Source: Roseofilum casamattae BLCC-M143 (GTDB lineage: Bacteria; Cyanobacteriota; Cyanobacteriia; Cyanobacteriales; Desertifilaceae). From it: DNA of 64,000 nt. The stretch lies in NCBI RefSeq assembly GCF_030068455.1, contig NZ_JAQOSQ010000004.1, forward strand, positions 186,001 through 250,000, written 5' to 3'. Below, piece after piece: positions 29,196 to 39,807 of the stretch. Numbering within the stretch: the first letter of the stretch is position 1; the number at the start of each line of letters is the position of its first letter. The position numbers and the translations under genes were made by a program. Under the pieces are notes generated by a model. The model made no database searches. It was not told where the DNA came from and saw nothing but the letters and a program-made list of their open reading frames with translations.

Positions 29196-30002
29196 ATGAG
29201 AGACGCGGGCAAGCAAAATATACTCGGCGTTCTGGTTAATGTTATCGACTATGAAGGAGCGGTAGCGCGCATTATCGATGCAGCCAAGGCAAAGCAAGGT
29301 CTCTCGGTTTCTGCTCTGGCGGTGCATGGCGTGATGACCGGAGTGATGGATAATACCCATCGCTTTCGCCTCAATCATATCGATTTAATTTGTCCCGACG
29401 GGCAACCGGTGCGTTGGGCGTTAAATTTAATTTACAAAGCGAAATTGAGCGATCGCGTTTACGGTCCCAATTTAACCCTCAAGGTCTGCGAACATGCCGC
29501 TCGCGAAGGGCTACCCCTGTACCTGTATGGCTCGCGCCAAGAGGTTTTGGACGCTTTTGCCCAAAATTTGCGCGATCGCTATCCAGGGCTGCAAATTGCT
29601 GGCTCTCAGCCATCGCGCTTTCGACAAACGACGGCTGAAGAAAAGCAGGAAATCGCACAAACGATTAAAAATAGTGGTGCGGCCATTACTCTGGTTGGTT
29701 TGGGCTGTCCGCGCCAAGAAGTCTGGGCTTACGAATACCGAGATAGCCTATCTATGCCACTGCTCGCCGTTGGTGCTGCCTTCGACTTCCATGCCGGACT
29801 GCTGCCGCAAGCTCCTCCCTCTTTGCAAGGAGCAGGCTTAGAATGGCTCTATCGCTTAATTCAAGAACCAAAACGACTCTGGAAGCGCTATGTTTTGTTA
29901 AATCCCTATTATGTTTGGTTGTTGAGTTTGCAGATGCTAGGACTCCGTAAATTCGACCCCGACAGCACAACAGTTCCGGAACAAGAACTGCGCTATGGTT
30001 AA
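29196..30002 (+). CDS. WecG/TagA/CpsF family glycosyltransferase
   Basis: This 268-residue protein has an ATG that directly follows the preceding TAG, with AAGGAG as its ribosome site. Family signatures are [29 protein letters not shown] (the PDG(x)P motif), [38 protein letters not shown] and [10 protein letters not shown]. Members attach an N-acetylhexosamine (for example ManNAc) to a lipid-linked sugar in enterobacterial common antigen or teichoic-acid-type assembly. Here it likely adds an early sugar in the neighbouring polysaccharide pathway. The tail after residue 225 is the usual basic membrane-associating part. Confidence 0.93.
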
Positions 30003-30008
30003 CGAACA

Positions 30009-30878
30009 TCAATGTGGATTGGGGATTGCATATAAATGGGCCCGCTTTTCAATCTTCGGTGGAGATTGGGGATCGAATTCAACCGGAGTTTTTGTATCGT
30101 CTAATTGAATCCAAGTTTTATAGCGACTGAGGTCGATCGCATCAAATAAATCTCGAACGGAAGTTCCATACATAAACAACTGTTCTGTATGAATTTCCAG
30201 CAAAATTTTGGGAGCCGTCTCCAATATTTTCTTTGCTCCTTTGAGGACTTCAAACTCATAGCCTTCCACATCAATCTTGAGAAAGGTTGGCACGACATTA
30301 TTTTGAGCCACATAGGTATCGAGATCGATGGTCTGGACTTCCTCTAAACCGTAGATGACATTAAAGAGCCGAGTCGATCGCAAGTTGCGCGGAATCAATT
30401 CTGGAATAATGGAAGCATTGGATTTCTTGAAGATTGTTATTGTGCCAGCTTCCGAACTTACGGCCTTATGTTCGACAACCACATTATCTAGGTGATTGAG
30501 ATCCATGTTTTGTTTAAGAATTTGGTAATTCTTCGAGTTCGCTTCAAAGGAGATGACTTTTCCGTCTTGTCCAACCCAATTTGCTAATTGGATAGCCGTC
30601 CAACCATGGTGACCTCCACATTCAAAGATAATATCGCCAGATTGAATTAAGTTGTTTCTGACGAACTCCATTTCTAAGATTTCCTTTGACCCCGTTGGGT
30701 TAGGCTCCTCATTCGGTTTCTTCTGCCCGTACCATCTTTCTCCCATCAAATCGCCAATGAGAAACTTAAATTCCATTCCCAATGTTTTTTTCTCGATCGC
30801 ATAGGGCTTGAAATTTTGTTCTCGGTAAATTTCATTGACCTGATCAATTCCAGATTTGATTTTGTTTAAGAATGACAT
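30009..30878 (-). CDS. FkbM-family SAM-dependent methyltransferase
   Basis: This 289-residue protein has a Rossmann core with IIFECGGHHGWTAIQLANWVG as motif I (the Gly-rich SAM loop), VISFEANSKNYQILKQN as motif II, and the FkbM hallmark PTFLKIDVEGYEFEVLKGAK. Such enzymes O-methylate sugars or polyketides. Beside five glycan genes, a methylated surface sugar is the likely product. It converges on the WecG gene with six bases between stops. The SAM fold is clear and the substrate is inferred from neighbours. Confidence 0.9.
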   Translation of the reverse strand: MSFLNKIKSGIDQVNEIYREQNFKPYAIEKKTLGMEFKFLIGDLMGERWYGQKKPNEEPNPTGSKEILEMEFVRNNLIQSGDIIFECGGHHGWTAIQLANWVGQDGKVISFEANSKNYQILKQNMDLNHLDNVVVEHKAVSSEAGTITIFKKSNASIIPELIPRNLRSTRLFNVIYGLEEVQTIDLDTYVAQNNVVPTFLKIDVEGYEFEVLKGAKKILETAPKILLEIHTEQLFMYGTSVRDLFDAIDLSRYKTWIQLDDTKTPVEFDPQSPPKIEKRAHLYAIPNPH

Positions 30879-35877: not shown

Positions 35878-37848
35878 TTATTTTTTAGTAATGCGGTAAT
35901 TTTTGATATAAAGAGCATCCAGCTTAGTATTTAAAAATAAGTCGATCGCATGAGCTGGAGTTTCCACAATTGGCTCTCCACGTCTATTTAAAGATGTATT
36001 GAGGACTATAGGGCAACCATTTAACTGATGTAAATGTAAAAGCAACCGATAAAATTCTCCGCAACTTTCATCAACTGTTTGTATTCTCGCTGTGTCATTA
36101 ACATGGGTAACTGCTGGAATTTCAGAAGAAATAACTTTAGCAGTAAAAAGCATATATGGTGATGGCAAGGGAACTTGAGTAAACCAAGATGATGCTTCTG
36201 ATGCCAAAACAGATGGAGCTAAAGGTCTCCAATTTTCACGTTCTTTAATCAAATTTACTCTATCTCTATTCTCTTTGTAACGTGGATTAGCAAGTATCGA
36301 TCGATGTCCTAATGCTCTGGGCCCAATTTCACTTCGCTCTTCAAACCAACCGATAATTGTATTATTATTAATATCAACTGCTGCCATTTGTGCTGGATTT
36401 TTCAGAATTGAGTAATTAATTTCATTGCCAAAATCTTGTAAAGTGTCTGCCAGCTCTTCTGTTTTGCAAGATAGACCTAAATAAGGAAGAGTATTGTTTT
36501 TTAATTTTCTTTTGTTTAGTAAGTTATGATAAAGCCATAAAGCTGCACCAACTGATAAGCCACTATCATCACAAGCTGGCTCAATAAAAATATGCGAGAA
36601 ATCTGTTTCTTTCCATATTCTAGTATTTGATGGGCAATTAAGCATTACTCCACCGGAAAGACAAAGATTAGATGTATTGATCTTAAAACTGTGCAGCATT
36701 CTACTGAAGGTATGACAAGCTTTTAAAATTATCTCTTCACACAGTTTTTGCGTACTTGCTGCAATATCTGCATTGATTGGATCGGTAGCACAGGCTTGCT
36801 TGCCTAATTTATTCGTATCATAACCATTTTTGATAGCTTCAGATAAACAATGATTTAGCCAATCAACTACTTGATTATTTGTGCTAAATGCAAGATAGTC
36901 AAAATAATTTCCAACAAATTTCCGATCGAAGAATAATGGGTTACCATATGGTGCAAGTCCCATCATCTTACCCGGCCCATCTGTCCAGCCTAAACCTAAT
37001 GACATACTAGCACAACGGTATAGCATTCCTATTTCCATAAAATGAGGAGTAAGTGGAAATATTTCTCTATCGAGACCTAACCAAAATAAACCACTTTGCT
37101 CTCTGTGCAAACCATCATGGGTTAAGATTGCTGCACAATTGTAATTTGATTGAAAATATGCAGATGCAGCATGAGAGGCATGATGATTGATAAAGTAACT
37201 TGGTATCTCGTATCCGAGTAATCTAACAGTAACGGGATAATGGAATCCTTGTTTCGCTTTCTCTTTCTTAAGAAAAGACTTCAAGCTTATTTTTTGTATG
37301 TTATCAAGGGTTAAGTCTCCTTCAATCCATTCATGGTTAGGTGTATAATAGTTCAACCATTTCAGTGTTTTAAATTCAGACTTGATTGAGCCTTTTGCAT
37401 AAGGAAAGCATTCTTGAAATTCATGCTTTGGCTTACCAGATATGTAGGGGTATTCTGGATTAGTAAGATTATCTTGACAATCTTCAGAAAATATTGTGGG
37501 TAAAATAATTTCTCCAAAGGCGGTATCAAAATTATACTCAAGTGACTCAAGTTGATTGGCGATCGTCGATCCTAATTTATATTCTGGCAAATAAGTTAGA
37601 TTGATATCGAAAATATTGGGTTCTAACAGAATTATTTCATAGTACTGAGTAGAGGTTATTGCACAGTAATCTATTCGATCAATTTTAATATTAGCTGTCT
37701 CAATAGCTTTTAAAATAAGATTGGGATGGAGAGAGATACAGTGCTTGACTCTTTCATGTCTTTCTGCTATCAGAGTTACTATAACTATACCATCCTGAAT
37801 AATGCTAACAGAAGCATCATGGCCAAAGTGTAGACCTAGAATAATCAT
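35878..37848 (-). CDS. NodU/TobZ-type O-carbamoyltransferase
   Basis: This 656-residue protein transfers a carbamoyl group from carbamoyl phosphate, through carbamoyladenylate, to a hydroxyl acceptor. It begins IILGLHFGHDASVSIIQDG (Kae1-like domain). The metal-site motif HHASHAAS is at residues 222-229, followed by LSGGVMLNC and EPACDDSGLSVGAALW. The C-terminal YrdC-like domain has GWFEERSEIGPRALGHRSIL, ENWRPLAPSVL and LNTSLNRRGEPIV. The metal motif comes about 100 residues later than in TobZ, so residues about 65-210 hold an insertion. The gene is AT-rich with no GCGATCGC, unlike its neighbours. It follows the 97-residue gene by 106 bases across a terminator. The acceptor is unknown. Confidence 0.9.
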   Translation of the reverse strand: MIILGLHFGHDASVSIIQDGIVIVTLIAERHERVKHCISLHPNLILKAIETANIKIDRIDYCAITSTQYYEIILLEPNIFDINLTYLPEYKLGSTIANQLESLEYNFDTAFGEIILPTIFSEDCQDNLTNPEYPYISGKPKHEFQECFPYAKGSIKSEFKTLKWLNYYTPNHEWIEGDLTLDNIQKISLKSFLKKEKAKQGFHYPVTVRLLGYEIPSYFINHHASHAASAYFQSNYNCAAILTHDGLHREQSGLFWLGLDREIFPLTPHFMEIGMLYRCASMSLGLGWTDGPGKMMGLAPYGNPLFFDRKFVGNYFDYLAFSTNNQVVDWLNHCLSEAIKNGYDTNKLGKQACATDPINADIAASTQKLCEEIILKACHTFSRMLHSFKINTSNLCLSGGVMLNCPSNTRIWKETDFSHIFIEPACDDSGLSVGAALWLYHNLLNKRKLKNNTLPYLGLSCKTEELADTLQDFGNEINYSILKNPAQMAAVDINNNTIIGWFEERSEIGPRALGHRSILANPRYKENRDRVNLIKERENWRPLAPSVLASEASSWFTQVPLPSPYMLFTAKVISSEIPAVTHVNDTARIQTVDESCGEFYRLLLHLHQLNGCPIVLNTSLNRRGEPIVETPAHAIDLFLNTKLDALYIKNYRITKK

Positions 37849-37882
37849 AACTCAGTGTTGTAAAAGCCTATTTATAAAGGAA

Positions 37883-37919
37883 ATAAAAACCTTAGAGCCT
37901 AAATATTAGCTCTAAGGTT
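37883..37919 (-). terminator. Intrinsic terminator between the small gene and the carbamoyltransferase
   Basis: On the minus strand an 11-bp perfect stem, AACCTTAGAGC with GCTCTAAGGTT, and a 10-base loop is followed by the T-rich tract TTTTTATTT. It lies 36-70 bases after the stop of the 97-residue gene and 35 bases before the carbamoyltransferase ATG. Full transcripts of the enzyme would need read-through. Confidence 0.75.
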
Positions 37920-37954
37920 AGCTTGATTGAGGCATCAAAAGTTATATTCTATAC

Positions 37955-38248
37955 TTAAGTATGCCCACCACGTCCACAAGCACCAATTACAACTACTGAT
38001 TCAGAGTCAGCATCCCATACCCATGCAACAGGAACTTGATTAGCTACTTCAGATGCATCTACAAATGATACTTTTAGATTTTCTTCATAAGATACCATCC
38101 CTTTTGGGAGTTGAGAAAACTCTTCTTCTGCATTTTCATCATGCATGTGTGGCATACAAACACCTAAACCATAACTCGATAGTTCTTCGATCATCGCTTG
38201 GACTTTCGGATCTTGAACTGCTTTGGTTGCAGTTGCTACCATAGACAT
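37955..38248 (-). CDS. Small Cys/His protein, candidate precursor or partner of the carbamoyltransferase
   Basis: This protein has 97 residues from ATG 38248, chosen because AGGAG lies 8 bases upstream; a longer frame to 38311 lacks this. I do not recognise the family. An N-terminal helical part (about 8-27, VQDPKVQAMIEELSSYG) leads to GVCMPHMHDE with C31, H34 and H36. An acidic stretch follows, then strands VSFVDASEVAN and PVAWVWDADSESVVVIG, and the tail ACGRGGHT with C91 and H96. The five Cys/His residues could bind metal. A terminator follows directly, then the carbamoyltransferase. The layout resembles abundant precursor peptides placed before their modifying enzyme, but a folded partner protein is equally possible. 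Confidence 0.7.
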   Translation of the reverse strand: MSMVATATKAVQDPKVQAMIEELSSYGLGVCMPHMHDENAEEEFSQLPKGMVSYEENLKVSFVDASEVANQVPVAWVWDADSESVVVIGACGRGGHT

Positions 38249-38294
38249 AATCTTTTCTCCTGGCATTAGAGGCAGTGTATTGTGACCAATTATA

Positions 38295-38409
38295 AATATT
38301 TTGTGGATCACTTGTAAAGTAACAAAAAGTGTATTTTAGTATATATTTTGGCGAGCGCCCAAAAGTAATATTTTGTAGATCAAAGTCCAATTGAGTCTCA
38401 AAAAGTGTA
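38295..38409. promoter_or_regulatory. Duplicated element in a divergent promoter region
   Basis: AATATTTTGTGGATCA (38295-38310) recurs as AATATTTTGTAGATCA (38367-38382) with one mismatch, 72 bases on. CAAAAAGTGTA (38323-38333) recurs exactly at 38399-38409, 76 bases on. The two composite units lie between the 97-residue gene and the STAND ATPase gene, one nearer each start, so each promoter may carry its own copy of the same operator. Confidence 0.65.
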
Positions 38410-38448
38410 AAAATGTATAATGCCAACTAATTAGGATTTTGACTGCTG

Positions 38449-39807
38449 ATGGATGCACAACACTTGATGGAATGGCTTGATAAGCTAATGGTCGAGAAAA
38501 CTGGATCGCATTTAAATAATCTGGAACAGGTAGTGTTAAGGGGAGTATGGAACAATCAGAAGTATAAAAAAATTGCGGATGAATATCACTGCACAGAAGC
38601 AAATGTGAAGAGAGTTGCAAGTGAGCTTTACAGCTTCCTGTCAGAGGAGTTGGAGGAAAAAGTTAGTAAGTCAAATTTTCGTGCTGCAATGGAAAGATAC
38701 TATATCTCTAATTCAAGTGTTGGTAACTTTGCACAAAGCCAGTTTTTTGGAAGTGAGATCCATCTTTGTAGAGAAAATTTTAATTCCGGTAGACCTGAAA
38801 AACCAGACTTAAATCCTACAATTAACCAACTAGAAAAAATACATGATCGCACTCACATCCCCAAATACGATCGCCTTTACCAGCGCACAGACGAACTCAA
38901 TACCCTGAAACACTGGATACTCGACAAAAAGAGCGCTATTATCGCCATCTATGGGTTGTCGGGAATTGGTAAAACAGCTCTCGCAACGCAACTGGTAGAC
39001 GAAATAGAAGATAACTTCGATCGCCTAATTTGGTACAGTCACCGAACCTTCCCCCATCTTAACGCCTTAACCACACAATTAATCCAATTTCTCTCCCAAG
39101 GAGCAACAACAAAAAATTGCACCTTGCTCGACTATTTGCGATCTCATCGTTGCTTAATTATCCTTGATGACTTCCAAGAAACTCTTACTCCTAGGAAACC
39201 CGTCGGGCACTACCAACCTGAATACCAAACCTACGGTAAACTATTACAAGAGATTGGGCAATCTCCCCACAACAGTTGCTTGCTGCTACTCAGTTGGGAA
39301 CAGCCTGTAGAAATAGCAACTTTAGCCGCGAATCATAACTCTTGTCAGACCCTACATCTGCAAGGACTAGGAGAAACAGCCAAACAACTCTTGCAAGCCA
39401 AACAACTCACTCATGAAGAGCAATGGTTGGAACTGATTAATCTTTACAGTGGCAATCCCTCGTGGTTGAATATTATTACGTTCACTATTGCAGAATTATT
39501 TAATGGTAGTGTTGCTCAGTTCCTCTCCTACTCTCCTCTATTCTTGGGAGACATAAAATCATTATTAGATACCCATTACCAACGTTTATCCAGCTCCGAG
39601 CGATCCCTCCTCCATTGGTTAGCCGATCGCGAAATAGACTTCGACCTCAAGATTCAACCTACCGATATCCCAGAAAATATCAATATTCTCGACACTTTAC
39701 AGTCTCTGCTCAAACGAGATTTAGTTATGAAATTAACCCATAAAAATCAGTCTATCATTAGACTTTCGCCAGTGATTAAGCATTATCTTCAACAGCACAA
39801 AAACTGA
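38449..39807 (+). CDS. Compact STAND ATPase (HTH + NB-ARC + winged helix), candidate regulator
   Basis: This protein has 452 residues. Residues about 20-72 contain a helix-turn-helix-like region (QKYKKIADEYHCTEANVKRVASE) of the kind found in front of NB-ARC domains in cyanobacteria. The NB-ARC ATPase starts near 140 with RTDELNTLKHW, then the P-loop GLSGIGKTA (169-177), Walker B LIILDDFQETL, and GNPSWLNIIT near the GxP motif. It ends in a winged-helix segment, LSSSERSLLHWLAD to IKHYLQQHKN, with no WD40 or TPR sensor repeats after it. The first part is AT-rich like the island; the ATPase part uses neighbour-like codons with GATCGC words. It probably controls the divergent genes. Confidence 0.85.
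   Translation: MDAQHLMEWLDKLMVEKTGSHLNNLEQVVLRGVWNNQKYKKIADEYHCTEANVKRVASELYSFLSEELEEKVSKSNFRAAMERYYISNSSVGNFAQSQFFGSEIHLCRENFNSGRPEKPDLNPTINQLEKIHDRTHIPKYDRLYQRTDELNTLKHWILDKKSAIIAIYGLSGIGKTALATQLVDEIEDNFDRLIWYSHRTFPHLNALTTQLIQFLSQGATTKNCTLLDYLRSHRCLIILDDFQETLTPRKPVGHYQPEYQTYGKLLQEIGQSPHNSCLLLLSWEQPVEIATLAANHNSCQTLHLQGLGETAKQLLQAKQLTHEEQWLELINLYSGNPSWLNIITFTIAELFNGSVAQFLSYSPLFLGDIKSLLDTHYQRLSSSERSLLHWLADREIDFDLKIQPTDIPENINILDTLQSLLKRDLVMKLTHKNQSIIRLSPVIKHYLQQHKN

What the first reader, a model, noticed from the sequence alone, without database searches (positions are those of the whole stretch)
35878..39807. Undescribed locus: small Cys/His protein, terminator, carbamoyltransferase and divergent STAND regulator
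Three genes share a duplicated control region. The 97-residue protein has a strong ribosome site and is followed by a clean intrinsic terminator before the carbamoyltransferase, so the small product should be made in excess over the enzyme. That layout is typical of a precursor or carrier followed by its tailoring enzyme. No known family name fits the small protein. Possible roles are O-carbamoylation of a peptide-derived or glycan-derived product, or a metal-carrying partner of the enzyme.
Basis: partly seen in the sequence, partly recalled or inferred. Interest (0 to 1): 0.75.

Follow-up and report, generated by a model that had tools for sequence, protein, structure and literature searches.

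The report
Small-protein gene with divergent STAND regulator
A cyanobacterium carries a rare, unnamed small-protein gene facing a switch-type regulator gene across a duplicated control element; related small proteins often sit beside the same type of regulator, while the carbamoyltransferase next door looks like a local passenger.

Summary
In detail: a 97-aa protein, a strong terminator, a NodU/TobZ-type carbamoyltransferase and a divergent NB-ARC (STAND) gene lie in an AT-rich stretch of about 4 kb. The duplicated control region is real: two copies of a two-part element (38295-38333, 38367-38409), 0 of 120 shuffles as good, and no other exact match in the 5.1 Mb genome. One copy covers the small gene's promoter, the other lies just upstream of the STAND gene's -10 box. 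What recurs is the regulator: 6 of 11 cyanobacterial relatives have a divergent gene homologous to the STAND protein's N-terminal helix-turn-helix, in three lineages beyond the window. Best reading: the STAND protein controls the small protein and itself; the enzyme is a low-level passenger. The small protein's activity is unknown: no family match, and its fold model was poor. In passing: regulators with this helix-turn-helix often carry 10-bp-phased repeats upstream of their own genes, a trait the window does not clearly share.

The parts
37955..38248 (-). 97-aa small protein: V16, Q17, Y26, G29, H36 and L47 invariant in 11 aligned sequences (window and 10 relatives), H34 in 10 of 11; variable Cys/Gly/His tail
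   Evidence: no family match
37888..37919 (-). intrinsic terminator between the small gene and the carbamoyltransferase gene
35878..37848 (-). NodU/TobZ/GdmN-type O-carbamoyltransferase with extra residues in the N-terminal half (between about 60 and 211, against GdmN); probable passenger
38449..39807 (+). STAND (NB-ARC) protein with an N-terminal sigma-region-4/ECF-like helix-turn-helix; probable regulator
38295..38333 (+). control element copy 1, covering the -35/-10 spacer, the -35 box and the upstream flank of the small gene's promoter
38367..38409 (+). control element copy 2, ending six bases before the STAND gene's -10 box
38289..38318 (-). promoter-like site of the small gene: TTTACA, 18 nt, TATAAT (11 of 12)
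   Evidence: consensus match only
38416..38421 (+). probable -10 box (TATAAT) of the STAND gene; the nearest -35-like hexamer that I saw (TTGAGT, 38391-38396) is 19 nt away
   Evidence: direct reading

Best explanation
The working unit is the pair 'small protein + divergent STAND regulator'. The STAND protein's N-terminal helix-turn-helix binds the two copies of the two-part element, one in the small gene's promoter and one in its own, and its NTP-driven NB-ARC switch makes that binding depend on a signal, so that the small protein is made when the signal is present. The carbamoyltransferase downstream is transcribed weakly by read-through and is a local passenger, not a partner. The small protein acts on its own, possibly as a ligand- or metal-binding accessory protein (conserved HxH, Cys-containing tail). 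Shown by sequence: gene layout, element duplication and uniqueness, terminator, absence of the enzyme in the relative loci read, recurrence of the helix-turn-helix gene. Inferred: DNA binding to the element, direction of regulation, signal, activity of the small protein.
For: Duplicated element: 0 of 120 shuffles; its only two exact matches in the genome lie between these two genes; copy 1 overlaps the 11-of-12 promoter-like site of the small gene. A divergent gene homologous to STAND residues 1-95 lies beside the small protein in 6 of 11 cyanobacterial relatives (L023-L028), although such domains number only 122 matches in 59 genomes, about two per genome. On a tree of 38 domains the linked rows need 4 changes, 15 of 500 shuffles as low, so the pairing lies on several branches. 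The domain gives sub-threshold sigma matches: TIGR02937 sigma70-ECF, E 0.049, in the window protein; Sigma70_r4 families, E 0.00035-0.00055, in two relatives. 0 of 15 relative loci have a carbamoyltransferase. Terminator.
Against: 5 of 11 cyanobacterial relatives (L008, L009, L020-L022) and all 4 plasmid loci read lack the regulator. The window's element was not found in the relatives' intergenic stretches, and the relatives' phased repeats were not found in the window's (best site ranks 314th), so the operator is not conserved. No data show that this protein binds DNA; its own HTH matches are all below the curated cut-offs. Four of the six linked relatives belong to one genus.
Confidence: 0.5

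Rival explanations
1. Conflict (defence or programmed-response) module: the STAND protein senses an invader and switches on the small protein as effector.
For: ECF-like HTH domains are listed among the N-terminal domains of bacterial TRADD-N proteins, whose C-terminal parts include STAND NTPases, in conflict systems of multicellular bacteria (PMC8195603, passages; I saw no example there with both in one protein). AT-rich stretch and patchy distribution.
Against: PADLOC gives only weak matches, best E 0.0004; no phage record matched the small protein; no toxic or enzymatic domain found in it; no C-terminal sensor repeats matched in the STAND protein.
Confidence: 0.2
2. The small gene and the STAND gene are neighbours by chance; the two elements serve another regulator.
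For: The element is not found in relatives; 5 of 11 cyanobacterial relatives lack the regulator.
Against: The divergent arrangement recurs in three further lineages; the two elements are the only exact ones in the genome.
Confidence: 0.15
3. One reading: the small protein is a peptide precursor or carrier and the carbamoyltransferase is its tailoring enzyme, or the enzyme carbamoylates a glycan-derived product.
For: Order small gene-terminator-enzyme; variable Cys-containing tail after a conserved part. For a glycan product: glycosyltransferase-like and FkbM-like genes, named by eye, lie 5-6.7 kb away at 29196-30878.
Against: No carbamoyltransferase in 15 of 15 relative loci; the conserved part makes up most of the protein; I recognised no peptide-maturation cluster by eye in the ORFs of 29-46.5 kb.
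Confidence: 0.05
4. The small protein is a metal-carrying partner of the carbamoyltransferase, whose active site binds iron (recalled for TobZ).
For: HxH and Cys in the small protein; one relative lies beside a heavy-metal P-type ATPase.
Against: No carbamoyltransferase beside any relative read; Cys31 is not conserved, and of the tail CxxC present in 6 relatives the window has only the second Cys.
Confidence: 0.05

Closest known systems
STAND/NB-ARC regulators of the MalT type; cyanobacterial sigma70 proteins with an NB-ARC accessory domain (PMC11119718, passages); ECF-like HTH domains of TRADD-N proteins (PMC8195603, passages)
   Same: NB-ARC NTPase domain; sigma-region-4-like HTH; divergent from a possible target gene
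   Different: HTH at the N-terminus without other sigma regions; only 452 aa; no C-terminal sensor repeats matched; private two-copy element
NodU/TobZ/GdmN/NovN O-carbamoyltransferases
   Same: Both Pfam domains; closest PDB chains are GdmN, a decarbamoylnovobiocin carbamoyltransferase and TobZ
   Different: Extra residues in the N-terminal half; best-scoring relative outside the own genome in 147 order genomes 39% identical over residues 219-653, shorter pieces up to 41%
Unnamed plasmid proteins of Polaromonas, Klebsiella/Raoultella and Methylophaga
   Same: Same small-protein family: 39-52% identity to the window protein for the first two groups; Methylophaga only through the Polaromonas protein and only in part
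   Different: Next to metal-resistance, mobile-element or glycogen genes; no HTH partner and no carbamoyltransferase in the 4 loci read

Membership tests
STAND (NB-ARC) regulator | NB-ARC P-loop NTPase domain | tested here: met
   PF00931, 40.2 bits, cut-off 23.5
STAND (NB-ARC) regulator | DNA-binding domain | tested here: inconclusive
   Only sub-threshold matches: GerE E 0.062 and sigma70-ECF E 0.049 in the window protein, Sigma70_r4 families in two relatives
STAND (NB-ARC) regulator | C-terminal sensor repeats (TPR, WD40) | tested here: not met
   No repeat family matched
NodU/TobZ carbamoyltransferase | N- and C-terminal carbamoyltransferase domains | tested here: met
   PF02543 123 bits and PF16861 196 bits, above their cut-offs
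NodU/TobZ carbamoyltransferase | HHxxHA motif (recalled as part of the metal site) | tested here: met
   INHHASHAASAYF aligns with HHEAHA of GdmN
NodU/TobZ carbamoyltransferase | O-carbamoylation activity | not testable with these tools
   Needs an enzyme assay
RiPP precursor with tailoring enzyme | Precursor and enzyme co-occur across genomes | tested here: not met
   0 of 15 relative loci
RiPP precursor with tailoring enzyme | Conserved leader, variable core | tested here: inconclusive
   Tail varies, but most of the protein is conserved
Type II toxin-antitoxin pair | Two small genes in one operon | tested here: not met
   Divergent genes, one of 452 aa

The most novel reading that the evidence does not exclude
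A widespread class of cyanobacterial regulators, in which a sigma-region-4-like HTH stands alone or is fused to a STAND NTPase, controls itself by binding arrays of GGAA-like units repeated every 10 bp across its promoter, and drives divergently placed mobile cassettes of undescribed small proteins, of which this one is a member with a diverged operator.
Probability: 0.3. Interest if true: 0.6.

Novelty: new variant of a known kind. Interest (0 to 1): 0.4.

Why it matters
STAND proteins are the bacterial kin of plant and animal immune switches, and the targets of the cyanobacterial ones are, to my knowledge, mostly unknown. Here is a compact case with one candidate target gene and a two-copy element found nowhere else in the genome, so target and operator can be tested directly. 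The small-protein family has no name in the libraries searched and spans cyanobacteria and proteobacterial plasmids.

Tried and rejected
Fold of the small protein: AlphaFold2 with three rows, mean pLDDT 41.3, pTM 0.33; too poor to search, so no fold search was run. PDB search by profile: best E 0.18, not used.

Relatives of the small protein: two genome-contig scans, the first found nothing, the second only L008 and L009; viral contigs with A2 and phages with P0001, nothing; E. coli genomes with the Raoultella gene DNA in near mode, nothing. Families of two relatives' genomes: 1 of 1 and 1 of 10, no new genome.

Idea that the window shares the relatives' phased repeat: not borne out. A 20-bp weight matrix from 22 sites that I picked by eye ranks the best site at 38250-38430 as 314th in the window; the window's lag-10 score is 13 of 20, shuffle p 0.065.

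Empty-site comparison in the genus: queA was found in 6 of 6 genomes (own included), but of 16 window proteins tried only queA itself matched the 5 relatives' stretches of 3.2-4.1 kb, so no empty site could be shown.

Spacing counts in 78 regions: GGAA pairs are few, 4 regions at 10 bp and 4 at 20 bp against 0-2 at other spacings from 5 to 25; GGA gives 12 and 15 regions against 0-7 elsewhere, while the complemented control reaches 7 at 10 bp and 0-6 elsewhere.

A note says 13 cyanobacterial genomes hold the small protein; recounted it is 12, window included.
Full report
What is there. On the minus strand lie a 97-aa gene (37955-38248), a terminator (37888-37919) and a 656-aa carbamoyltransferase gene (35878-37848); on the plus strand a 452-aa STAND gene starts at 38449. 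The 500-bp blocks from 36.0 to 40.0 kb have 34-43% G+C; the blocks from 29.0 to 35.5 and from 40.0 to 46.5 kb have 39-57%, mostly 46-57%. This suggests, but does not prove, acquisition. The terminator is strong (-21.2 kcal/mol for 81 nt, z -3.34, 2 of 200 shuffles as good). The carbamoyltransferase start has no visible Shine-Dalgarno sequence.

The duplicated control region. Two copies of a two-part element, AATATTTTGTRGATCA ... CAAAAAGTGTA, lie at 38295-38333 and 38367-38409. Their gapped self-alignment scores 35 against 17.1 (sd 2.6) in 120 shuffles, none of which reaches it. In the 5.1 Mb genome the exact pattern has two matches, both here; inexact copies were not sought. Copy 1 covers the spacer, the -35 box and the upstream flank of the small gene's promoter-like site, TTTACA-18-TATAAT, 11 of 12; copy 2 ends six bases before a TATAAT upstream of the STAND gene. 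This is the layout expected of a dedicated regulator acting on two divergent promoters; binding itself is inferred.

The small protein. It has no match in Pfam, NCBIfam, PADLOC or PHROGs, nor a meaningful one among PDB sequences. In cyanobacteria it is rare: 3 of 388 class genomes with the single sequence, 10 of 388 order genomes with profile A2, 3 of 386 phylum genomes with A2. The samples overlap; together they give 12 genomes, the window's included. It was not found in the five other genomes of the genus. It also occurs on plasmids of Polaromonas (beside a heavy-metal P-type ATPase), of Raoultella and Klebsiella (5 records, 2 of them read) and, as a partial match to the Polaromonas protein only, of Methylophaga. 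In an alignment of 11 sequences (window and 10 relatives; near copies left out) V16, Q17, Y26, G29, H36 and L47 are invariant and H34 is kept in 10; the tail is variable, with CxxC in 6 of the 8 relatives whose tail is present and only its second Cys in the window. The AlphaFold2 model is not usable (mean pLDDT 41.3).

Neighbours of relatives. tblastn of the carbamoyltransferase (E up to 0.001) finds nothing in 15 of 15 relative loci of 6-16.5 kb, 11 cyanobacterial and 4 plasmid. Several loci are cut by contig ends (L008 within 0.8 kb on one side), the Raoultella and Klebsiella loci are near copies, and the Methylophaga locus is not matched by the window protein itself in that call. A divergent gene homologous to STAND residues 1-95 is present in 6 of 11 cyanobacterial loci (L023-L028): full length in L023 (454 aa, 37% identity), ORFs of 116-173 aa in the others. 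L025-L028 are one genus, so this is three lineages beyond the window. In L023 and L024 two further small ORFs lie between regulator and small protein. The five without it are L008, L009 and L020-L022; L020-L022 have another gene divergent from the small gene, whose L020 copy matches XRE-type HTH families. A 124-135-aa protein without a Pfam match lies near the small gene in 5 of 11 (L008, L020, L021, L022, L024).

The regulator's domain. It is common in cyanobacteria: 37 of 59 class genomes, 122 matches at E up to 1e-8. By a mechanical count the nearest upstream ORF of at least 70 aa is divergent in 20 of 30 loci (the window among them), co-directional in 5 and absent in 5. On a tree of 38 domains (L025 left out) the small-protein-linked rows need 4 changes, 15 of 500 shuffles as low. 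The window protein and its relatives show only weak sigma-factor-like matches. ECF-like HTH domains among the N-terminal domains of bacterial TRADD-N proteins (PMC8195603, passages) and NB-ARC as an accessory domain of cyanobacterial sigma factors (PMC11119718, passages) are in print; PMC7159879 (passages) mentions HTH effector domains more generally.

Phased repeats in the family. I read upstream regions, with starts extrapolated from the match, for 73 match rows (30 returned loci including the window, 40 further stretches, and 3 own-genome paralogues) and for 5 small-protein-linked genes (L025 left out). Five rows of the same score range were dropped: three matches began deep in the domain, one lay near a contig end, one was overlooked. 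Weaker rows were not examined. One region was too short, leaving 77. At a lag of 10 bp, 8 of 77 regions reach 15 of 20 matches, against 0-1 at each other lag from 7 to 21 except 20 bp (3); 11 of 77 have a shuffle p up to 0.01. Close relatives are included, so the independent number is smaller; 66 of 77 do not reach that p. In a separate control on mechanical ORFs, 8 of 21 family upstream regions reach 15 of 20 against 4 of 434 others, of which one is a run of N and one overlaps a family promoter. Some arrays read like CGGAAAAAGT CGGTTATAAT and run into a -10-like box. The core GGAA resembles the -35 element of ECF sigma factors (recalled). The window does not clearly share this array. Three literature searches with terms for such repeats and STAND proteins listed no paper that by title or abstract start describes it (listings only); that is no proof of absence.

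The carbamoyltransferase. It has both family domains, is nearest in the PDB to GdmN, a decarbamoylnovobiocin carbamoyltransferase and TobZ, and has extra residues between 60 and 211 relative to GdmN. In the order 52 of 147 genomes, own included, have a match at E up to 1e-20; the best-scoring other one is 39% identical over residues 219-653. The own genome has a second, distant relative. None of the 308 plasmid and 134 phage records with a match covers 80% of it in one place.

Conclusion. The pair of small protein and STAND regulator under a private two-copy element is the best-supported unit (confidence 0.5). The enzyme is most simply a passenger. The activity of the small protein remains open; a ligand- or metal-binding role is a guess from HxH and Cys residues.

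Noticed in passing
L023:5363-5398, L024:8910-9076, L026:8578-8631, and upstream of the HTH genes of L028, L038, L040, L047, L061: Arrays of units repeated every 10 bp, many holding GGA or GGAA, at or near the promoter of regulators with the window's HTH domain; well above controls.
   Followed up: partly
L008:192-566, L020:7707-8114, L021:8744-9148, L022:6639-7022, L024:7236-7616: An unnamed 124-135-aa protein recurs near the small protein in 5 of 11 cyanobacterial loci.
   Followed up: partly
window 35878-37848: Carbamoyltransferase has extra residues in the N-terminal half (between about 60 and 211) relative to GdmN; function unknown.
   Followed up: no
L009:7131-8279: A small-protein relative that looks frameshifted lies downstream of what looks by eye like a cyanase gene and cyanate/nitrate transport genes.
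   Followed up: no
window 30009-30878: FkbM-like methyltransferase gene (named by eye) in blocks of low G+C (39-42%), possibly another acquired gene.
   Followed up: no
L124, L125, L126 (queA of three genus relatives): queA is split into two matches near residue 290 within an open frame of 393-411 aa, as if it carries a variable in-frame insertion.
   Followed up: no
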